Of a DNA stretch of 9,912 nt, positions 1 through 9,912 are shown one piece after another (the stretch's first letter is position 1; the number at the start of each line of letters is the position of its first letter). Where the stretch lies: positions 1 through 9,912 of the forward strand of contig PWGE01000316.1 in NCBI GenBank assembly GCA_003554345.1, in the 5' to 3' direction. Below the pieces are notes generated by a model. That model was not told the origin of the DNA. It did no database searches and saw only the letters and a program-made list of their open reading frames with translations. The position numbers and the translations under genes were made by a program. The stretch comes from T1SED10-198M sp003554345 [NCBI: Candidatus Sumerlaeota bacterium]. GTDB lineage: Bacteria > Sumerlaeota > T1SED10-198M.

Positions 1-117
1 ATAGCTTCATCTACTTTGTTACCTCCGTAAATGTACCATTTGGTGATAGGCGGCTGGTTAGACCTTACCTATGCCGGACTTCAACCGACAAGAATCTAAA
101 AGCTTTTCCTGGCGCAC
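1..117 (-). ncRNA. possible 5' end of a group II intron (domain I), truncated by the window edge
   Basis: There is no credible reading frame here. On the minus strand the sequence begins GTGCGCC at 117-111, matching the GUGYG start of bacterial group II introns. It continues with a segment of the form GTTGAAGTCC (about 86-77), then an ATAGG/CCTAT stem (68-72 with 46-50) enclosing a GGT/ACC stem, and an ACCA-TT-TGGT hairpin at 35-44. This dense short-stem pattern resembles domain I of such introns. The rest, including any reverse transcriptase gene, would lie outside the window to the left. The resemblance is from memory of intron sequences, not alignment. It could instead be another structured RNA or unrelated intergenic DNA. 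Confidence 0.35.
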
Positions 118-185
118 CCTGCAAATAATGTTGTAAAATGATATATTATTTAGCCCAGAGAATTTATGTAAAGGCAAAGATTATT

Positions 186-1316
186 ATGATACGTATACTT
201 CATTTAGCCGATCTTCATTTAGGCTGGGAACCTGCGTATTTACCAGAAGAAAAGAAAAAAATACGACGTAACGAACGTGATCAACTTCTAAAAAAAGCAG
301 TAGATTTTGCCCTCTTTCCTGAAAATAATATTGATGCTGTCTTTATTATTGGTGACCTGTTTGAAAAGTATTCTCCACCACCCCCTCTCGTAAAAGAAGT
401 GCTCAGGCAATTAGATCGACTTTTGCAGGGAGGAAAAGAGTTGTTTACCGTCCCCGGGAATCATGATGAAATCACTTACCGTGATTCTGTATATCGAAAA
501 CACAGGGATGAATGGCCGGGGGTACTGGTGAGCAATCCCATGCCCGAACTGGTTGTCTCAAAGAAGATTAATGGTATCAAGTTGCATATATATTCCCTGG
601 CTTATACCGGCGGTTTGACCCGACCTCATGCCATAGATTCTTTTCCCAGAAAAGATGAAGCCGGTCTTCATGTCGGAGCATTTCACGGTTCATTAGATTG
701 GCAGAAATTAGCAGACAGAAGCCTGCCCCTTAACTCGTCTCTTCTGGCAAAAGCGGGGTACGATTATATCGCTCTGGGACATTATCATCGTCATCTTGAA
801 GAAAAAATCGGCAAGGGAATAGCAGTTTATCCCGGTTCTGTTGAATTTAAAAATTTTCATGACACGGGAACAGGTCACTTTACTGTTATGGAATATCCCG
901 GGGACAGAATCAACATTGAAAAATATCCTGTTGATAGACGCCAACACCTGTTCAAGGAAATTTCTCTTTCGGATATCTCCGATCGAGAAGAATTGATTAA
1001 ATTGTGCCGCAAGCTAAGTGATCCTCAAGCCATGGTTCACCTGAAGCTGTCAGGAAATCCACGCTTTGCAATTGATACCGAAAAGCTTGCTGAGGAACTG
1101 GAACCTTATTTCTTTTACCTGGAAATTGACAATTCCGCCCGTTTTTTTGCAGAGAGTTTTCTGAAAAGCATTGCCCAAGAACCCACGGTACGAGGAGCCT
1201 ATGTGAGACGTTTTCAGGAGAAACAAAAGGAAGTGGCGTCGGAACGCGAACAAAAAGTTCTGAAAAGGGCTTTGTTAAAAGGTCTCACCGCCCTGGAAGG
1301 GAAAGAAAAAGGATGA
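186..1316 (+). CDS. Mre11/SbcD-family DNA repair nuclease, YhaO-like
   Basis: Probably the nuclease subunit of an SbcCD/Mre11-Rad50-type complex that trims DNA ends or hairpins with manganese in the active site. Calcineurin-like phosphoesterase motifs appear in order: D9-L-H11, G56-D57-L-F-E, G91-N92-H93-D94, a histidine in the AFHGS stretch (H167) and G198-H199-Y-H201, followed by YPGSVE (215-220). All metal-ligand positions look intact. At 376 residues it is close to the usual length. A C-terminal capping region and a basic, helical tail (about 350-376) follow, the likely contact with the ATPase. The ATG at 186 is preferred over one at 138, because the family starts MIRILHLADLH and AAAGG lies upstream of 186; the first 16 codons of the longer frame match nothing I recognise. 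The last four bases overlap the ATPase gene, so translation is probably coupled. Confidence 0.9.
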   Translation: MIRILHLADLHLGWEPAYLPEEKKKIRRNERDQLLKKAVDFALFPENNIDAVFIIGDLFEKYSPPPPLVKEVLRQLDRLLQGGKELFTVPGNHDEITYRDSVYRKHRDEWPGVLVSNPMPELVVSKKINGIKLHIYSLAYTGGLTRPHAIDSFPRKDEAGLHVGAFHGSLDWQKLADRSLPLNSSLLAKAGYDYIALGHYHRHLEEKIGKGIAVYPGSVEFKNFHDTGTGHFTVMEYPGDRINIEKYPVDRRQHLFKEISLSDISDREELIKLCRKLSDPQAMVHLKLSGNPRFAIDTEKLAEELEPYFFYLEIDNSARFFAESFLKSIAQEPTVRGAYVRRFQEKQKEVASEREQKVLKRALLKGLTALEGKEKG

Positions 1317-4300
1317 GTGGTCATACCATTACCTTTGAAAAAATAATCCTTGAAGGATTTGGTCCTTATCGGGAGAAAACAGAATTTATTTTTAGCGAAG
1401 GCTCGAACTGCTACGTAGCCTCAAATGAAGCCGGGAAAACCACCATGCTGTCTGGTTTGAGCGCAGTTCTCTTCGGTCTTTCCCACCGTCAGAAAAGCAG
1501 TTCCGCTTTTACCCTGGAGCGTTTCCGCAACTGGAATAATCCCCGAAACTGCCGGGGTGAAGTCTTTGTAAGTACCGGCGAAAACCGATACCTTTTTCAG
1601 CGTGATTTTGATAGTCATAAGGTTGAGGTTTGGTTATTGGATGAAGATTTTTCACGGAAAGAGCTCATTTTAGAAGGAACACATAATCCTGAAGCGCGTA
1701 AACCGCTTAAAAGATATGAAGAACTCCTTCATGAAATCCTGGGTATAAGCAGCCAGGAACTTTTCACCGATACCTTCAGCGTTGAACAACCTTTGCCTGA
1801 ACCGCAAAATATCAGCACAGAACTACAGGGTCTGCTATCCGGAGGAAAAGGGACTCCTTTTCATAAGGCGTTAGATACACTTGTTGAAGAATTAAAGACC
1901 CTGACCAAATATACCGGTCCTAAAGATCGTGGTATCACAGCCCGAAACATGTCTAAAGAAGGGCAGCTGGAAGAACTGACTCATAGAATAACAGAATTAG
2001 AACAAAAGATTGAGAGCGGGAGAACAGCAGTCGATTCCCTGGTAGAAATACAACAGGCGTTACAAGAAACAGAAGAAGAACTTACCCAGACAAAAAAAAC
2101 TCTCTCTCAAAAAGAAAAGACTCACAAAGCATGGTCAGAATGGCAACTTCTGCAGCGAGAATACTCCAGCGCCGCCCGGGAACGTAATAACCTTAAAAAA
2201 GCAGAAACCGAAGCACGCTCTCTAGAAAAAAACGCTGAAGAGACGCATTCCAGGTTAGAAAAAGACTATTCTGAATTCATCGAAGCCCCACAGAATACCG
2301 GTGATCACCTCCAGAAAATGGTAAGTATTAACAGTACACTCAATGAACTTGACAAAGAAATACGCGGATATGAAGAAGCGCTGAAAGAAGAAAATAAAAA
2401 GCTTGAAGAACTGGAAAATGACCTTACAAAATATTCCGGCTGGGAGTGGCTGGGAAAGGATCCTGTCAGTAAAATCAGTTCACTTCGTCGCAGCACCAAA
2501 ATCTGCCGGGAAGAGTGGCACCGCTTTCAAAGGAACTGGCAAGAATTATCAGAATTACAGGATACCCTCAAACACTTTGCTCCTTTTGCGAAGGCATCAG
2601 AGCAACAACTGAAGGTGGCAAGCTCTTATGACCGTCTGCTTGCTGAAAAGACACAACGGGCTAATAAGGCAAAAGAGGCGTTTCAAAGCGCTGAGAACTC
2701 CTTAAAAAATTATCGCGAAGAGAAAGACAGATTTGAAAAGAATTATAAAGAGCTGATAAACCTGCCTGATGATGCTCCTGAGGCTTTGAACGATATGTTG
2801 GAGGAACTGAAAAAAGCCGAAAAACTTGAAAAGAAAGCAGAGGAACTTTCTCAAAAAACTTCAGTTCCAATTGCAATAAGAGCAGGCAGTGCAGCAATTC
2901 TTTCCATTATAGCGGGTCTTTTTGCCGGCACGGGAAACATTCTTCTCTTAACAATACTTATATTTCTGGGTGCCATTGTCGGGTTTTGGGCAGGGGGTTT
3001 TATATACAGCCTGACAGCTTCGGCTTCCCGAAAAAGGCTGTCAGATCTTCACAATGAACTACGAGAGTGCCGGAAAAAAATAGAACAGTACAAAAACAAA
3101 CTGGGCCGTTTTGCAGAAGAAAGCGAGATTGAGCTGGCACGCGTGGCTGAACGCTTTAAACAATATGAACAGGAAAAACTCCGTATTGAAGAAATGGGGC
3201 GTGAAATTTCAGAAGACAAACTGAACAGTCTGCGTGAGGAGCTTAACGAAGCAGAGAAGGAACTCGAAGATTTTAATCAGAAAGCAGCCCCTTTTTGCCA
3301 TTTTGAAGATATTCAGGAAGCCTTAAACAAATGGCGCTCTCTATCTGATAAAAAGGAACAGCTCGGGAAACAAGTCAATGCACTGGCACATGAAAAGTTT
3401 GGATGCCAAGCAGAAGATGCGGCCAGCGCCGATCCTGCTTCTGAAGAAACAGCTGAACACTGGCAGGAAACTGCCCGCTTTTTAAATCTTATTGCCGGTG
3501 AACAGGCTATACGCAATGTACAAACCATGATCAAATATCTGGATAATGTGTCGGAGAACTGGTGGCAGGAGAATGAAGAAAAAGCCGCAGATCTGGCAGC
3601 ATTAAAAAAACAGAGAGAAGAACTCGCTTACAGATTGAAGACTCATGAAAAGCAGTTCAATGAAGCACAGAAAAAAAGACAGAACCTTCAATCACAAAAA
3701 AACACAATCGTTTCAGCCATTCAGAAGATAATGAAAAAAAATGATAACGATGCCGAAGCAGCGCTGAAAAGATGGAAAGAGAGCCAGGAACTTCTCAAGG
3801 AAATAGAATATACAAGAGGGCGGATAGAGACGCTTGTAAAAAATTATAGCGTAGAGGATATTTCTGGGTTGCAGGAATTGCTTAACAGAAGAAATGACTA
3901 CGTTCTCAGCTGTTTGAACAAATGGAAGGAACATATTAAAAATAATCCGGGTTTACCGAATACCGAGGAAGCCGGTGATGTTGAACAACTAAGAAAAACT
4001 CTGGAACAGCTTGAACATGAAATCAATCAACTAGTTGAAGAAAAAGAACGCCAGGAGCAAAAACGCAACGAGCTGACAAAGCAGCAGGCCATGCTGGAAG
4101 GAGAAAACCCCTTAAATATTGCAGCGGCTGAGCTGGAACTGGCAGAACTTCAACAGCACAAAGAAAACATGGAAATTGAGGCAGACGCCCTTGAAATAGC
4201 ATTTAATGAGCTCTACCAGGCTATCAGCGAATACCGTTCGACATATAAAGAACGCCTGGAAGAAAAAGCATCTTCATACTGCCAGTCTATTTCCGGTGTA

Positions 4301-4630
4301 CTCACTCGCGCAATCGAACTGGACGATAATTTTAATATCAGCATCAAGGAAAATGGTAGACCCTGTACCGTTGAACAATTAAGCAAAGGAGCTCGTGATC
4401 AGCTTTACCTGGCTATTCGTTTTGCAGTAGCCGACCTGCTGGCCGAGGAAATCAAGCTCCCATTAATTTTTGATGACCCCTTTACCAGCAGTGACTCTCA
4501 CCGACTGAAAAATATTCGCAATATTCTCAAACAACAAGCTCCTCTCAGACAATTCATACTATTATCTCATGCAGATTATTTCACCTCCTGGGGAAAACCA
4601 GTCACAGTAAAAAACTTGGAGAAAAGCTAG
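1313..4630 (+). CDS. SMC/Rad50-like coiled-coil ATPase with central membrane hairpin, YhaN-like
   Basis: Probable ATPase partner of the upstream nuclease: it would bind DNA and use ATP to gate or position the nuclease. The 1105 residues show an ABC head split across both ends. The N-terminal part has a P-loop A36-S-N-E-A-G41-K42-T-T and a Q-loop glutamine (Q159). The C-terminal part has a signature L1023-S-K-G-A-R-D, Walker B LIFD1054-D1055, a D-loop S-S-D1061 and H-loop H1086. Long charged heptad-rich coiled coils fill about 220-515 and 570-1000. Between them, residues 524-541 and 543-566 form two hydrophobic helices. No CxxC zinc hook is present, so this is the YhaN type (YhaN of Bacillus also has central membrane helices) rather than SbcC. 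The first P-loop glycine is alanine here. The start overlaps the nuclease stop as ATGA, with AAGGG about 11 bases upstream. Confidence 0.88.
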   Translation: MSGHTITFEKIILEGFGPYREKTEFIFSEGSNCYVASNEAGKTTMLSGLSAVLFGLSHRQKSSSAFTLERFRNWNNPRNCRGEVFVSTGENRYLFQRDFDSHKVEVWLLDEDFSRKELILEGTHNPEARKPLKRYEELLHEILGISSQELFTDTFSVEQPLPEPQNISTELQGLLSGGKGTPFHKALDTLVEELKTLTKYTGPKDRGITARNMSKEGQLEELTHRITELEQKIESGRTAVDSLVEIQQALQETEEELTQTKKTLSQKEKTHKAWSEWQLLQREYSSAARERNNLKKAETEARSLEKNAEETHSRLEKDYSEFIEAPQNTGDHLQKMVSINSTLNELDKEIRGYEEALKEENKKLEELENDLTKYSGWEWLGKDPVSKISSLRRSTKICREEWHRFQRNWQELSELQDTLKHFAPFAKASEQQLKVASSYDRLLAEKTQRANKAKEAFQSAENSLKNYREEKDRFEKNYKELINLPDDAPEALNDMLEELKKAEKLEKKAEELSQKTSVPIAIRAGSAAILSIIAGLFAGTGNILLLTILIFLGAIVGFWAGGFIYSLTASASRKRLSDLHNELRECRKKIEQYKNKLGRFAEESEIELARVAERFKQYEQEKLRIEEMGREISEDKLNSLREELNEAEKELEDFNQKAAPFCHFEDIQEALNKWRSLSDKKEQLGKQVNALAHEKFGCQAEDAASADPASEETAEHWQETARFLNLIAGEQAIRNVQTMIKYLDNVSENWWQENEEKAADLAALKKQREELAYRLKTHEKQFNEAQKKRQNLQSQKNTIVSAIQKIMKKNDNDAEAALKRWKESQELLKEIEYTRGRIETLVKNYSVEDISGLQELLNRRNDYVLSCLNKWKEHIKNNPGLPNTEEAGDVEQLRKTLEQLEHEINQLVEEKERQEQKRNELTKQQAMLEGENPLNIAAAELELAELQQHKENMEIEADALEIAFNELYQAISEYRSTYKERLEEKASSYCQSISGVLTRAIELDDNFNISIKENGRPCTVEQLSKGARDQLYLAIRFAVADLLAEEIKLPLIFDDPFTSSDSHRLKNIRNILKQQAPLRQFILLSHADYFTSWGKPVTVKNLEKS

Positions 4631-4861: not shown

Positions 4862-5581
4862 TTAGTCCGTTAAACCGGAAAGATATTCTTCTTCAAATTC
4901 CTCAGGAGATATTTCAAACCGTGGAATTCCCATAGATCCCGGGGCAATGCTATACTTAGGAAAAACAATCACCATCTTTTCATTTTCAAGGTAAAAACCG
5001 GAGGCTGCAGCAAGCCAGTTCATATCCTCTTCCCACTCAAAAAAATAGCCCTCCTCACGACTCTCAACGTGTTGCTGAATAAAGGCATTTATAGCACTTA
5101 CATAATCAAATTCTTCAGAAAAGAGGTCTCCCAGAATTATTTCACGACTTTCCTCTGGATGGATATTATAAGTATCTAACTCAGAAAATGTGCTGCCGCC
5201 TGTATTGTACTCCACCAGCACCGTAAAAGAAAGGAAAGGAGAGCAGGACCTTTTCTGATAATCTATCACCAGCCAGTACGGGGGATAGTCTTTCTGTTCC
5301 TCTTCCGGAATTTTTGCTTTGTTGTCCCTGGCTTGCCGGGCTAACCTTTCAGGTATTTCCAGGTATCTCTCCATTAAAAAGTCATTCATCTTTTTCTCAA
5401 ATTCAGAGTCCGGTAATCCCTCAATACCGGGAATAGCTGCATCTATTTCGATCACTTCGTCCTGAATAACCATTTCATGAGCCGTGAACAAGGAAATCTC
5501 TGTATCTTCTGAAAACAAAGGAGGAGAGAGAAGGATTGTCATGCAGAAAATAAAGAAAAGTTTACAGGGTTTTGATCTCAT
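4862..5581 (-). CDS. secreted DUF3298 (RsiV/PdaC-type) domain protein
   Basis: An exported protein of 239 residues whose molecular role is not established. The N-terminus MRSKPCK followed by LFFIFCMTILL and a likely cleavage near LFS-ED (about residue 24) is a signal peptide. Residues about 35-130 fit the N-terminal half common to this group, with the segment IPGIEGLPDSEFEKKMN (50-66) and a beta segment ending YNTGGSTFSE (125-134). Residues about 135-228 fit DUF3298, with a GDLF motif (151-154) and the typical ending FYLENEKMVIVFPKYSIAPG (197-216). The same fold forms the extracellular part of the anti-sigma factor RsiV, which binds lysozyme, and a region of the deacetylase PdaC. No catalytic domain or anti-sigma helix is present here. 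A TTG at 5599 could add six residues; the ATG at 5581 is chosen, although neither has a good ribosome site. Confidence 0.8.
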   Translation of the reverse strand: MRSKPCKLFFIFCMTILLSPPLFSEDTEISLFTAHEMVIQDEVIEIDAAIPGIEGLPDSEFEKKMNDFLMERYLEIPERLARQARDNKAKIPEEEQKDYPPYWLVIDYQKRSCSPFLSFTVLVEYNTGGSTFSELDTYNIHPEESREIILGDLFSEEFDYVSAINAFIQQHVESREEGYFFEWEEDMNWLAAASGFYLENEKMVIVFPKYSIAPGSMGIPRFEISPEEFEEEYLSGLTD

Positions 5582-5639
5582 GTTTTTTATCTTTTTCAAA
5601 TGTTACAAAGGTTGCAAAAAATAGTTCCTTTATTATCAG

Positions 5640-6474: not shown

Positions 6475-6504
6475 TTGTTGTAGCAGGATTTTTTGTATTA
6501 TAAT
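6475..6504 (+). promoter_or_regulatory. candidate promoter of the GLUG/PKD gene
   Basis: A perfect TATAAT at 6499-6504 has TTGTTG at 6475-6480, an 18-base spacer. Predicted transcription would start around 6511, only about three bases from the ATG at 6514, giving an almost leaderless message. The surroundings are very AT-rich, so chance matches are likely. Confidence 0.42.
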
Positions 6505-6513
6505 TATAGTGTA

Positions 6514-9500
6514 ATGCAATTGGGGAAGTTTTTTGTCTTTTTATTTTTTGTGCTTTCCATAAACTGGGGTATGGGAAATTCTCATCACTCTTCTGAAAGC
6601 AGTTTCGCCGGCGGTAAAGGTACCGAGAACGAGCCCTATTTAATAGAAACCGCCGAGCAACTGGATAACGTGAGAAATCACCTGGATGCTCATTTCAAAC
6701 AGATAGCAGATATTGATCTCAGCGATTATTCATCTGGATCGGGGTGGGAACCACTCCCCACATTTCGTGGTATTTACAATGGAAATGGCTATAAAATCAC
6801 CAACCTTTTTATTGACAGGCCGGATACTCAAAACATAGGTTTATTTGGACAGCAACGTGGTAAACTCAAAAATATTGCTCTGGAAAAAGTAGAGGTTAAA
6901 GGCCAGGACTTCACAGGAGGTTTAGTAGGAGTCAATAACGGTACTATTAGCACCAGCTACAGCGGTGGAATAGTGTTAGGAAGGGATGTGGTAGGAGGAC
7001 TCGCAGGTGTAAATGAACGCAGTACAATAACAAACAGTTATTCCACTGCTGAAGTATCGGCTAATTCAACTGTTGGTGGTCTGGTAGGAAGAAACCAGTG
7101 GTCTGCCACTATTAATAATTGTTATGCCTCCTCTCCTGTATGGGGTCTATTTATTACCGGCGGACTCGTTGGCAGAAATCAAGAATCAACTGTAGAAAAT
7201 TCATGGTATGATTATCAAACCACCCGACATCTTGATGATACAGGAAAAGGAACTCCTCTTTCTACTGAAGAAATGAAACAGAAATCCTCTTTTGAGGATT
7301 GGGATTTTGAAGAAACATGGAATATTATAGAAGGAACTTCCTATCCTTTCTTTCAATTGCAAGAACCTTTCGCCCTTTTCAGTGCAAAACCTCAAGAAGG
7401 TTCTACCCCCCTTGAAGTTAAATTCACCGACAGATCATACGGTGAGATCAATTCTCTACAGTGGGATTTTGGAGATGGCAACACCTCTAATGAGCAGGAG
7501 CCACTACATATATATGAGGAAGCAGGAAATTATACGGTAACCCTATCAGTAACAGGAAAAGAGGGAAAAGATGAGTCCAGCCAGATAATTAGCGTTCATG
7601 ATCCTTTAGAAGCGTCATTTTCAGCAAAACCCACTGAAGGCACGCCTCCTATGAGCATCGAATTCACTAACTCCTCCAAAGGCAACATTACTGATTATTA
7701 CTGGAATTTTGGAGATGGCTCCTCTGAAATTGATATTCACGACCTTACCATTAAACAGGCATGGGAAGAATCCTGCGGAATGGTCATCCAACCTGAAGAT
7801 GATCCTTATGATATACTGACCCATGACTATTTTCGTGCTATGTCTGTCTATGAAGACTTCTTTTTTGTTTTAAGACACGGAGATCCTGCTAATCCTGGAG
7901 GAGGGGAAGGACCGGCGGTCAATTTCTTTTGTACGACAGACGGCTCTCATCGTCCTGATCTCTATCTTTCTACGGAAGGTATCCCTCAAGAAAGATTTGG
8001 TCTGCATCAGCTGGAGTTTGCAGATGACGGTACGATATACGGTACAAATCTTGTCTCAGACAGAGTAGGAGAAAATGATTTTCATGTACTTGACGGTGAT
8101 TTTACTGTTTATCGGTGGGAAAATATTGATGCTGAACCTGTTGAAATATATCGCTGGGATGGCAACCCCGAAAGAATGAGACTGGGAGATGGGATTTCTG
8201 TCAGGGGAAGTGGTGAAGATACCAGGATACTCATAACAGGTAATAGTAAAGATTCTCTTCCTTTATTACTCCAACAGAAAGAAGGAGAATGGAAAGGAGA
8301 TTTTCTTGATTTTCCTGTAAGAGCACAAGAGGTTTATTTAAATGAAGATGGAACCTTCTGGGCTTCCTACTATGCTGTTGAAACACCTCTACAAAAATAT
8401 CATCACAATGGCTTCGCGGTTGCAGATAAAAAAATTAATTTTGATGAAGTATATGATCCTGCTGGAATCACATCATTCACGATAGATGAAGATAATGATA
8501 TTATTTATACTATTGGGGTACGCCTTGATAATCGAAGAGTAGTTGCGTGGACTAAAAATGGCAATTTAATTGCCGAGTCAGAACCCTATGAATGGAAGGA
8601 ATATGACCATGATGATTATTTGAATGGTACTGCCCACGTTGATCTTGATAATCAGGGAAATATTTACACTCTCCTTGAAAGAAGCGGTGTTTCCTGTTTT
8701 ATAACTGCTTCTCCACCTTTTACAAAACAGAATCCTGTTCATACATATAAACGAGAAGGAACGTTTCCAGCAACACTCACAATCTGGGATGACAACGGAA
8801 CAGACTCTGCCACGGAGTATATTTCTCTCTACAAACCAGCTGAAGCGGATTTTAATGCCGAACCTACAGAGGGTATCGCTCCTCTACAAGTTAACTTTAG
8901 CGACCAGTCCAGTGGTGATATCGACACCTGGCAGTGGGACTTTGGAGATGGCAATACCAGCTCCGAGCAGGAGCCGAAACATACATATACGGAACCAGGA
9001 GAATATACCATAACCCTATCAGTAAGTAGTGATGGAGAAGAAAGTGAAACAGAACAAACTATTACAGTGTATGCTCAAGTAAAAGCATCCTTTTCAGCAG
9101 AGCCCATTGAAGGACCAGCTCCTCTGGATGTGAAATTTACCGACAATTCTATTGGTGATATTGTTAGCCGCTACTGGGATTTTGGAGATGGGAATACTTT
9201 CATCCCCCAACCTGATTCCAAACCTGATTATGCCCTGAAGTCAGATTTGCAGCCTTTACTGCCAGAAGGAGGTGAAGGCAATTTTACTGAGTTTGCTTTT
9301 GATTCTACAGGAAGGCTTTATGTGCTTGAGACAGATGCCGTGTACTATACTGACGATCCTTTTGATAATGAACCATCCTATTCCGTTTTGATAGAGTCAA
9401 AAGAGGTCTTCATGGAGGGAATGGCCATAGATGATGAAGACAACGTCTATTTGCAGGCATTTTGGGTTACAGAAACAAAAAGTATTATTTGTAAGTTTGA

Positions 9501-9912
9501 TGCGGAAGGCAATCTAATTTGGTCAAATGAAAATGATCGTATTGTCTGTTCTACAATACTGAATAGTGGAGAACTGCTGGCAGCAAGCCATGAAGGAGAA
9601 TTTTTCCTTTTTGATCCAGATGACGGTTCTTTGATTGATTCGCACCGGGTCTGGGGATTAGGGAGATATGTTCAAGATATAACCTCAACACCCGATGATA
9701 CAGTATTTGCCTTCCAATCCGGAGCTGTTAAGAAGGTATCGGGAGGAAATGCAGATAACCTGGAGGATTATTCGGCTGAACAATTTGGTGAGGCGTCATA
9801 TGATAACATGGAATGGAGAAAGGGTAGAATTTCGTACCTGGCAGGGGAAAATGTTGTGATTTCTACCAGCTACGATCCTGACTCTCCTTCAGATTCGCGC
9901 CTGATAATACAA
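6514..9912 (+). CDS. large secreted GLUG/PKD surface protein with inserted propeller domains (3' end missing)
   Basis: The frame is open for 1133 codons to the window edge. Residues 1-21 form a signal peptide (MQLGKFFVFLFFVLSINWGMG). Residues 36-235 are a beta-solenoid region beginning GTENEPYLI and containing GLUG repeats. Four PKD domains follow: intact at 286-363; split at 366-403 and 739-774; intact at 776-853; and a fourth opening at 856-894 that is interrupted in turn. The inserts (404-738 and 895 onward) look like beta-propellers, with DxxGxxY-type blade turns. GLUG and PKD modules are typical of bacterial cell-surface or secreted proteins; adhesion or polymer binding is inference. The C-terminal anchor is not visible. 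No ribosome site precedes the ATG. A TTG at 6493 with GCAGGA upstream is an alternative, but the signal peptide needs a start at or before 6514. Confidence 0.85.
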   Translation, partial: MQLGKFFVFLFFVLSINWGMGNSHHSSESSFAGGKGTENEPYLIETAEQLDNVRNHLDAHFKQIADIDLSDYSSGSGWEPLPTFRGIYNGNGYKITNLFIDRPDTQNIGLFGQQRGKLKNIALEKVEVKGQDFTGGLVGVNNGTISTSYSGGIVLGRDVVGGLAGVNERSTITNSYSTAEVSANSTVGGLVGRNQWSATINNCYASSPVWGLFITGGLVGRNQESTVENSWYDYQTTRHLDDTGKGTPLSTEEMKQKSSFEDWDFEETWNIIEGTSYPFFQLQEPFALFSAKPQEGSTPLEVKFTDRSYGEINSLQWDFGDGNTSNEQEPLHIYEEAGNYTVTLSVTGKEGKDESSQIISVHDPLEASFSAKPTEGTPPMSIEFTNSSKGNITDYYWNFGDGSSEIDIHDLTIKQAWEESCGMVIQPEDDPYDILTHDYFRAMSVYEDFFFVLRHGDPANPGGGEGPAVNFFCTTDGSHRPDLYLSTEGIPQERFGLHQLEFADDGTIYGTNLVSDRVGENDFHVLDGDFTVYRWENIDAEPVEIYRWDGNPERMRLGDGISVRGSGEDTRILITGNSKDSLPLLLQQKEGEWKGDFLDFPVRAQEVYLNEDGTFWASYYAVETPLQKYHHNGFAVADKKINFDEVYDPAGITSFTIDEDNDIIYTIGVRLDNRRVVAWTKNGNLIAESEPYEWKEYDHDDYLNGTAHVDLDNQGNIYTLLERSGVSCFITASPPFTKQNPVHTYKREGTFPATLTIWDDNGTDSATEYISLYKPAEADFNAEPTEGIAPLQVNFSDQSSGDIDTWQWDFGDGNTSSEQEPKHTYTEPGEYTITLSVSSDGEESETEQTITVYAQVKASFSAEPIEGPAPLDVKFTDNSIGDIVSRYWDFGDGNTFIPQPDSKPDYALKSDLQPLLPEGGEGNFTEFAFDSTGRLYVLETDAVYYTDDPFDNEPSYSVLIESKEVFMEGMAIDDEDNVYLQAFWVTETKSIICKFDAEGNLIWSNENDRIVCSTILNSGELLAASHEGEFFLFDPDDGSLIDSHRVWGLGRYVQDITSTPDDTVFAFQSGAVKKVSGGNADNLEDYSAEQFGEASYDNMEWRKGRISYLAGENVVISTSYDPDSPSDSRLIIQ
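6835..7173 (+). repeat. GLUG repeat array in the coded protein
   Basis: Five copies of a G-L-x-G core occur at residues 108 (IGLFG), 135 (GGLVG), 161 (GGLAG), 188 (GGLVG) and 216 (GGLVG), spaced 26-28 residues apart. Segments such as GTISTSYS, STITNSYS and ATINNCYA lie between them. This matches the Peptidase_M26 GLUG repeat family, which forms beta-helical rungs in exported proteins. There is no peptidase signature here. Confidence 0.8.
7459..7551 (+). repeat. PKD coding repeat, copy 1 (first intact PKD)
   Basis: These 31 codons run from QWDFGDG through TVTLSV. By hand count 74 of 93 bases match the copy at 8932-9024, including identical runs over the EQEP and TLSV codons. Such similarity at the DNA level suggests that the units arose by duplication within this gene. 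Confidence 0.7.
7723..8727 (+). other. propeller-like domain inserted in the second PKD domain
   Basis: Residues 404-738 separate the WNFGDG strand of the PKD domain from its HTY strand. Blade-type turns ending in an aromatic or hydrophobic residue recur near 450, 509, 573, 616, 665 and 718 (for example ADDGTIYGT, NEDGTFWAS and NQGNIYTL), consistent with about six blades. The segments FTVYRWEN (530-537) and RLGDGISVRGSG (556-567) recall DUF4623-type propeller proteins, a resemblance from memory only. Confidence 0.6.
8932..9024 (+). repeat. PKD coding repeat, copy 2 (second intact PKD)
   Basis: This is the partner of the 7459-7551 repeat, covering QWDFGDG to TITLSV of the third PKD domain. 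Most differences fall in the loop and at third codon positions. Confidence 0.7.
9196..9912 (+). other. second propeller-like insert, in the fourth PKD domain (partial)
   Basis: From residue 895, directly after WDFGDGNT, the sequence leaves the PKD pattern and becomes a repeat of beta-rich segments. The aromatic or hydrophobic blade positions Y936, Y979, L1022, F1065 and Y1108 are each exactly 43 residues apart, and most follow a D/N-rich turn (DSTGRLY, DDEDNVY, NSGELL, PDDTVF). At least five blades are visible. The closing half of the PKD domain would lie beyond the window. Confidence 0.58.

What the first reader, a model, noticed from the sequence alone, without database searches (positions are those of the whole stretch)
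7609..8835. A PKD domain split by a 335-residue propeller-like domain
The second PKD domain starts normally (FSAKPTEG ... WNFGDGSS) and then breaks off. Its second half (PVHTYKREGTFPATLTIWD) appears only after residue 738. In the intact copies the same loop is about 8 residues. PKD domains are usually strung in tandem, and a whole domain nested in this loop would mount it away from the chain. The frame is continuous, so this is not an assembly artefact of two genes.
Basis: partly seen in the sequence, partly recalled or inferred. Interest (0 to 1): 0.6.

Follow-up and report, generated by a model that had tools for sequence, protein, structure and literature searches.

The report
Propeller-like domain nested in PKD domain
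In a bacterial surface-type protein, a whole, probably propeller-shaped domain sits in one loop of an Ig-like PKD domain, like a head mounted on the side of a stalk; unrelated domains sit in the same loop in other proteins of bacteria and methanogens, so the loop looks like a reusable socket.

Summary
Confirmed and extended. The second PKD domain of the window ORF is split: N-half 7612-7719, C-half 8722-8817, with about 335 in-frame residues between them where the intact copies have 7. The insert is a whole domain, probably a beta-propeller (distant DUF4623 kin). In the same Sumerlaeota genome its two relatives lie free between whole PKDs (C223) and inside an FGE-sulfatase domain (C97). The window's fourth PKD is split too, by another propeller-like family whose relatives are free-standing. 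Kelch propellers occupy the same PKD loop on contig C381 (and probably C336) and in 23 archaeal loci; a discoidin domain does so in another Sumerlaeota genome. A model of an archaeal kelch-in-PKD unit, from nested sequences only, is confident (pLDDT 96.5, pTM 0.92). The window's own model makes one PKD sandwich from the two halves, but intact-PKD rows in its alignment favour that, and its insert is not modelled confidently. Likely role, inferred: a PKD stalk with side-mounted ligand-binding heads, like the 'split domains' of RTX adhesins. Known principle; this pairing was not found in the papers searched.

The parts
6493..9912 (+). Open frame of the protein (TTG at 6493, first ATG 6514), cut by the contig end
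   Evidence: window = whole contig C428, 9912 bp; signal-peptide-like start seen by eye, not tested
7372..7596 (+). PKD 1, intact
   Evidence: PF18911 67.8 bits at 7393-7593; N and C halves 48 and 34 bits, 7-residue loop
7612..7719 (+). PKD 2, N-terminal half (ends WNFGDG)
   Evidence: PF18911 profile 9-46 at 7615-7725; 41 bits with half-HMM
7762..8700 (+). Nested domain, probably a beta-propeller, distant DUF4623 kin; linkers 7720-7761 and 8701-8721
   Evidence: relatives at 48% and 43% in C223 and C97; alignments; family profile finds 4ftd_A, E 7.5e-13; core borders set by eye from the alignment
8722..8817 (+). PKD 2, C-terminal half (QNPVHTYKREGTFPATLTIWD...)
   Evidence: PF18911 profile 48-79, 29.6 bits; 32.7 bits alone; 12 bits with the half-HMM
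8839..9069 (+). PKD 3, intact
   Evidence: PF18911 77.2 bits
9085..9192 (+). PKD 4, N-terminal half (ends WDFGDG)
   Evidence: PF18911 profile 20-46 at 9118-9198; 49 bits with half-HMM
9202..9912 (+). Start of a second nested domain, BamB/PQQ-like propeller of another family; the C-half of PKD 4 would lie beyond the contig end and is not seen
   Evidence: PQQ_2 E 8.9e-4, under its cut-off; relatives at 41-49% in C210, C427, C150 are free-standing, no PKD halves found
6991..7059 (+). GLUG motif in the N-terminal part of the protein (best of 2 stretches)
   Evidence: PF07581 E 9e-10

Best explanation
The protein is a secreted-looking protein of a Sumerlaeota bacterium with a string of PKD domains, one of which (and by its visible half a second one) carries a whole propeller-like domain in the loop that follows strand C. 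Shown or strongly supported: the split, the pairing of the halves, recurrence of the same site with unrelated inserts, and that relatives of the inserts exist free. Inferred: the PKD string is the stalk; a domain that leaves and re-enters through one side loop stands off the stalk as a head, need not bear pulling force, and can be exchanged without breaking the stalk. The heads most likely bind extracellular ligands (glycans or proteins), which would make this an adhesin or substrate-capturing protein.
For: Complementary Pfam halves. In the 40 ORFs with half-PKD events at 7 bits (L100-L104 left out) N and C halves alternate 157 of 157 times; 59 pairs have a 6-23 residue loop and 34 a gap over 40. 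Ten ORFs hold one split pair and no other PKD half. Kelch-in-PKD model pLDDT 96.5, pTM 0.92, its propeller Z 37.1 to the LZTR1 kelch domain. Window model: halves superpose on the 1l0q PKD, 80 residues, 1.3 A. Same insert family free in C223 and nested in FGE in C97. Relatives of the second insert are free in C210, C427, C150. An F5/8 type C domain (E 2e-9) lies between PKD profile positions 3-44 and 48-80 in another Sumerlaeota genome. RTX-adhesin split domains are described as projecting ligand-binding domains from the adhesin axis (passages seen of PMC12077191 and PMC10865825).
Against: The window's insert has no confident model (219 of 412 model residues under pLDDT 50, overall pTM 0.35); Pfam and PDB sequences give nothing for it alone. 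The window model's PKD was helped by intact-PKD rows. The window's C-half scores only 12 bits with the half-HMM, so at thresholds of 12 or 20 bits alternation breaks once in the window, and once or twice in L041. In divergent Sumerlaeota PKD proteins (L100, L101, L104) halves often do not alternate (10 of 184 neighbours alike when they are included at 7 bits); I read this as weak halves missed, untested. Export, stalk role and ligand binding are untested.
Confidence: 0.75

Rival explanations
1. The halves do not pair with each other across the insert: each C-half pairs with the next N-half (a circularly permuted or swapped PKD), so propellers and PKDs simply alternate in series.
For: In C381 the order is kelch, C-half, N-half, kelch, C-half, N-half, kelch, C-half, which alone would allow it.
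Against: Ten ORFs have one split pair and no other PKD half at 7 bits; in the window the C-half is followed by a complete PKD; a single kelch unit is modelled confidently with its own two halves.
Confidence: 0.04
2. Assembly chimera or a remnant of gene fusion, not a real domain.
For: The genome is a draft in 454 contigs, 87.66% complete.
Against: The frame is open through both joints; the window has two split PKDs, and splits at the same site recur on C381 and in 24 loci from other organisms' assemblies.
Confidence: 0.02
3. Nested as described, but the propeller is an enzyme (for example a lyase or glycosidase) or a spacer, not a binding head.
For: In C97 the same family sits inside an FGE-sulfatase domain; many propellers are enzymes (general knowledge).
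Against: No enzyme family matched the insert in Pfam or NCBIfam; I could not assign catalytic residues.
Confidence: 0.25
4. One insertion event only: the window's split PKD descends from the archaeal kelch-in-PKD module and its insert was later replaced or diverged.
For: The tree of PKD halves does not reject one clade of all split PKDs including the window's (p-AU 0.786; only 71 columns).
Against: The inserts belong to different families; the window's N-half scores higher against intact PKDs of its own genome (mean 100.0, n 14) than against the nested PKDs of other organisms (mean 82.3, n 31), while the two C381 N-halves score highest against those (means 107.8 and 117.4). For the window's C-half the difference is weak (56.6 against 50.1).
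Confidence: 0.15

Closest known systems
'Split domains' of RTX adhesins (Ig-like domains from which a ligand-binding domain emerges; PMC12077191, PMC10865825, passages seen)
   Same: A beta-sandwich of the stalk is interrupted, and a whole domain with neighbouring ends buds out of it; the chain then returns and completes the sandwich.
   Different: The guests named in the passages are carbohydrate- or sugar-binding, PA14, peptide-binding and RTX-roll domains (a vWFA domain emerges from a beta-roll). Neither text holds 'PKD' or 'propeller'. Here the host domain is a PKD, the guests are propellers, and the organisms are Sumerlaeota and methanogens.
Archaeal surface-layer protein with YVTN propeller and PKD (PDB 1l0q)
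   Same: Propeller and PKD in one surface protein; its PKD is the top structural match of the split PKD.
   Different: By the entry's title the domains are in tandem: the propeller is beside the PKD, not inside it.
Kelch-in-PKD proteins of methanogens (24 of 60 loci, one of them Syntrophomonadaceae)
   Same: Same loop of the PKD, similar insert size (304-322 residues in 29 of 34 long gaps), same complementary halves.
   Different: The insert is a kelch propeller, and most of these PKDs read FGDE where the window's read FGDG.
Prolyl oligopeptidase family (recalled, no call)
   Same: A propeller nested in another domain.
   Different: The host domain is an alpha/beta hydrolase, not a stalk sandwich.

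Membership tests
PKD domain (PF18911/PF00801), for the split domain | Match to the profile over both halves, in order and without overlap | tested here: met
   9-46 and 48-79; pieces alone 26.3 and 32.7 bits, cut-off 27, so the N piece alone is just under it
PKD domain (PF18911/PF00801), for the split domain | Core residues kept (F, G, P, F, S, W, F, G, D in the N-half; P, H, L in the C-half) | tested here: met
   12 invariant columns in the 23-row alignment with 22 intact PKDs
PKD domain (PF18911/PF00801), for the split domain | One PKD beta-sandwich | tested here: met
   80 residues, 1.3 A, Z 12.7 to the 1l0q PKD; the alignment included intact PKDs, so this is not independent
DUF4623 (PF15416), for the insert | Score above the curated cut-off (28.9 bits) | tested here: not met
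   No match for the window, C223 or C97 copies; free relatives L023 27.2 and L022 16.8 bits, below the cut-off; 3 of 11 members of the family alignment match at E up to 0.1
DUF4623 (PF15416), for the insert | Kinship through intermediates to a solved structure | tested here: met
   Profile of 11 relatives finds 4ftd_A, E 7.5e-13, best stretch 117 profile positions; that 4ftd is a DUF4623 protein is recalled
Beta-propeller fold, for the insert | Closed ring of blades | tested here: inconclusive
   The insert is modelled with low confidence; weak matches of single relatives to NHL and PQQ repeats
RTX adhesin | Nonapeptide RTX repeats, type I secretion signal, N-terminal retention domain | not tested
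   The C-terminus lies beyond the contig end; no search made
RTX adhesin split domain (as an architecture only) | A sandwich interrupted by a whole domain, then completed | tested here: met
   relatives of both inserts exist free of PKDs

The most novel reading that the evidence does not exclude
The loop after strand C of PKD domains is a general plug-in socket. At least four domain types (DUF4623-like, BamB/PQQ-like and kelch propellers, discoidin) have entered it on separate occasions in bacteria and archaea, and in this Sumerlaeota lineage whole domains move into the inside of other domains (also FGE-sulfatase) often enough to suggest a favoured route of domain exchange on surface proteins.
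Probability: 0.35. Interest if true: 0.7.

Novelty: new variant of a known kind. Interest (0 to 1): 0.5.

Why it matters
It suggests a sequence rule (WxFGD with no PxHxY within about 25 residues, then PxHxY further on) for finding side-mounted heads on PKD stalks; Pfam here reported such PKDs only as halves, some under the cut-off. It extends the split-domain principle from RTX adhesins to PKD proteins of methanogens and uncultured bacteria, and offers a natural site for grafting domains onto a stalk. The kelch form occurs in methanogens, a Syntrophomonadaceae genome and this Sumerlaeota genome, which hints at transfer between members of anaerobic communities (inference).

Tried and rejected
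Looked for close kin of the window's insert in genome contigs and viral contigs and in plasmids: none, so no relatives of it could be handed to the structure predictor. Kelch kin in plasmids (18 records, 16 of them Leptospira) match only within residues 57-366 of the 389-residue query, that is the kelch part; none in phages. Viral contigs gave 8 kelch loci; in the three read (L031, L032, L034) I saw no PKD. BFVD matches of the kelch model were seen only as a list of 50 names of 886 and not followed. Looked for a repeated target site and a composition step at the joints of the window insert: the longest word shared by the two 150-base stretches was 9 bases, and GC is 0.400 inside against 0.433 and 0.438 beside it, so no sign of a recent DNA insertion. 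The tree of PKD halves has 71 columns and cannot prove or exclude separate insertions. Papers: searches returned no paper; I saw listings and abstracts' beginnings only, none about a domain nested in a PKD. Only open-licence PMC papers are held. PMC2447325 (surface repeats of Methanosarcina) was searched for six words in the 8,998 characters held; its body was not read. (Sumerlaeota) was a listing, not followed.

Limits of the counts: loci were fetched with a kelch-in-PKD query, so the share of split PKDs is no census. Left out of the 157 of 157: L100-L104, whose halves score low; with them 174 neighbours alternate and 10 do not. Also left out: L001-L008 and L016-L021, which repeat window or own-genome stretches. 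Left out of the kelch model's alignment: L063, L064, L069 (odd insert length), so 28 of 31 nested units of other organisms; the window model used 22 of the 46 intact PKDs. Base rate: in this genome 6 split sites (three cut by contig ends, so only one half seen) against 17 other rows (my grouping of the 24 rows); in the Methanocalculus genome of L048 39 PKD rows with one split pair and one lone C-half; in the Methanosarcina genome of L040 110 rows with one clear split pair. Splits are thus rare there.

Full report
WHAT IS THERE. The window is a complete 9,912-base contig of a draft genome of 2.55 Mb in 454 contigs. Its phylum is Candidatus Sumerlaeota: the genome of a locus titled Candidatus Sumerlaeota (L076) gives the same match at the same contig place as the 'same phylum' genome G027. 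The last ORF (6493-9912, open at the contig end) begins with a signal-like stretch (by eye), has GLUG motifs and then PKD domains.

THE SPLIT. PF18911 finds an intact PKD 1, then profile positions 9-46 at 7615-7725, then 48-79 at 8722-8817, then an intact PKD 3, then positions 20-46 at 9118-9198 and nothing more before the contig ends. Half-domain models from 16 intact PKDs of other loci score the window's N-half at 41 bits and C-half at 12 bits; one shuffle of each of 1048 ORFs gave at most 5.9. MAFFT, given the split PKD and 22 intact ones, opened one gap across the insert and aligned the rest as one PKD with 12 invariant columns.

THE INSERT IS A WHOLE DOMAIN THAT ALSO LIVES ELSEWHERE. Alone it matches nothing of note in Pfam, NCBIfam or PDB sequences. 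In the same genome it has two relatives, 48% and 43% identical. In C223 the relative lies between two complete PKDs. In C97 it lies inside an FGE-sulfatase domain: the C97 protein aligns with the C223 FGE in two pieces, residues 60-116 and 421-707, with the propeller between them (95-430 as a third piece; the borders overlap by some residues); Pfam sees the C97 FGE from profile position 30 on, right after the propeller. Nine of 40 genomes of the phylum, its own included, hold relatives; L022 and L025 are single-domain ORFs of 364 and 388 residues. L023 and L022 reach 27.2 and 16.8 bits against DUF4623 (cut-off 28.9); 3 of 11 relatives match it at E up to 0.1. The profile of 11 relatives finds 4ftd_A at E 7.5e-13; among three further matches, at E 0.02-0.08, are Scone-E and Scone-R, which I recall as designed propellers. 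So it is a distant DUF4623-like domain; the propeller fold is likely, not proved.

A SECOND SPLIT IN THE SAME ORF. After the N-half of PKD 4 comes a stretch with weak PQQ/BamB similarity (E 8.9e-4, under the cut-off). Its three relatives in this genome (41-49%) start right after a signal-like stretch, and no PKD halves were found in their ORFs. It is another propeller-like family at the same PKD position; its end and the C-half lie beyond the contig.

THE SAME LOOP ELSEWHERE. On C381 two kelch propellers lie between complete pairs of PKD halves, and a third, cut by the contig start, precedes a C-half; on C336 one, also cut, precedes a C-half. Among 40 Sumerlaeota genomes only G000 has matches to the kelch unit that include both PKD halves; matches in the other genomes begin at model position 31 or later and end by 342 of 383 (E limit 1e-10). 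A genome-contig scan with the kelch-in-PKD alignment gave 60 loci. In the ORFs of the loci fetched by then, 26 sources (24 of those 60, L009 and the window) hold 34 half pairs more than 40 residues apart, 29 of them 304-322. Twenty-three of the 24 are titled as archaea (Methanoregula, Methanosarcina, Methanocalculus, Methanolinea and other methanogens) and one as Syntrophomonadaceae. L063 has a 607-residue insert and L069 one of 114. In another Sumerlaeota genome (G016) an F5/8 type C domain (E 2e-9) lies between PKD profile positions 3-44 and 48-80, and a Sad1/UNC-like domain (E 3.8e-5) follows in what reads by eye as the next PKD.

DO THE HALVES PAIR? In 40 ORFs with events the halves alternate 157 of 157 at 7 bits; every ORF that begins with a C-half or ends with an N-half is cut by a contig or locus end, except a weak 10.6-bit call in L097. 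At 12 and 20 bits 149 of 151 and 145 of 148 alternate, one break in each case being the window's own weak C-half; with L100-L104 included, 174 of 184 at 7 bits. Ten ORFs hold one split pair and no other half, so pairing with a neighbour in the chain is not available to them. AlphaFold2 on the Methanosarcina unit with 28 nested-only rows: mean pLDDT 96.5, pTM 0.92, strands 7-36 before and 349-382 after the propeller; residues 42-341 match kelch domains at Z up to 37.1. The PKD part of that model was not matched to PDB, since propellers filled the list. AlphaFold2 on window 7603-8838 with 22 intact-PKD rows: halves about pLDDT 95-98, 219 residues of the insert under 50, overall 54.8, pTM 0.35; 80 residues spanning 1..412 superpose on the PKD of 1l0q at 1.3 A (Z 12.7), with 2c26 and the ColG and PrtV PKDs close behind. 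Intact rows favour that answer.

ONE EVENT OR SEVERAL? The window's N-half scores higher against its own genome's intact PKDs than against split ones of other organisms; the C381 halves do the reverse; the window's C-half hardly discriminates. The tree puts 31 of the 33 kelch-carrying rows together (SH-aLRT 94, fork drawn open; the two C381 rows beside Methanoregula L050; L046 and L064 fall outside) and the window's split PKD elsewhere, but the AU test does not reject a single clade of all split PKDs (p 0.786; 71 columns). Separate entry of several insert types is the likelier reading, since the inserts are of different families. The kelch module looks acquired as a unit, perhaps from methanogens; this is inference.

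HOW IT PROBABLY WORKS. [quoted passage not shown] The window protein has the same anatomy with a PKD as host. I infer a stalk of PKDs with side-mounted propeller heads that bind something outside the cell. What they bind is unknown; an enzyme is not excluded.

NOVELTY. The principle is known; a PKD as host and propellers as guests were not found in nine searches on the subject of an open-licence library. I therefore call it a new variant of a known kind.

Noticed in passing
L009, L010, L011, L013, L022, L025, L029; L122, L123: Several Sumerlaeota ORFs end in a short tail of the form xWxLF or similar plus 0-3 residues (ALWHLFE, SDWNLFE, GDWQLFDY, SSWTLFY and the like); it may be a C-terminal sorting tail. 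A simple pattern fits 9 of 72 distinct tails, two of them (L024, L103) not convincing; L122 and L123 were seen by eye.
   Followed up: partly
L030:1-2703 (C97): The same propeller-like family nested inside an FGE-sulfatase domain, near profile position 30.
   Followed up: partly
L100:4945-6381 (G016): A discoidin (F5/8 type C) domain nested in a PKD and a Sad1/UNC-like domain in what reads as the next PKD of a 3263-residue ORF.
   Followed up: partly
L063:5278-7320 and L069:1389-1952: L063 has a 607-residue kelch insert (12 DVW motifs in its ORF) in one PKD loop, perhaps two propellers in series; L069 has only 114 residues, perhaps a collapsed or shortened array.
   Followed up: no
window 138-4630: Calcineurin-like phosphoesterase and AAA-domain genes overlapping by 4 bases; probably an SbcD/SbcC-type pair (name recalled).
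   Followed up: no
window 4862-5599, minus strand: DUF3298/PdaC-domain protein with a signal-like start, on the opposite strand to the other four ORFs.
   Followed up: no
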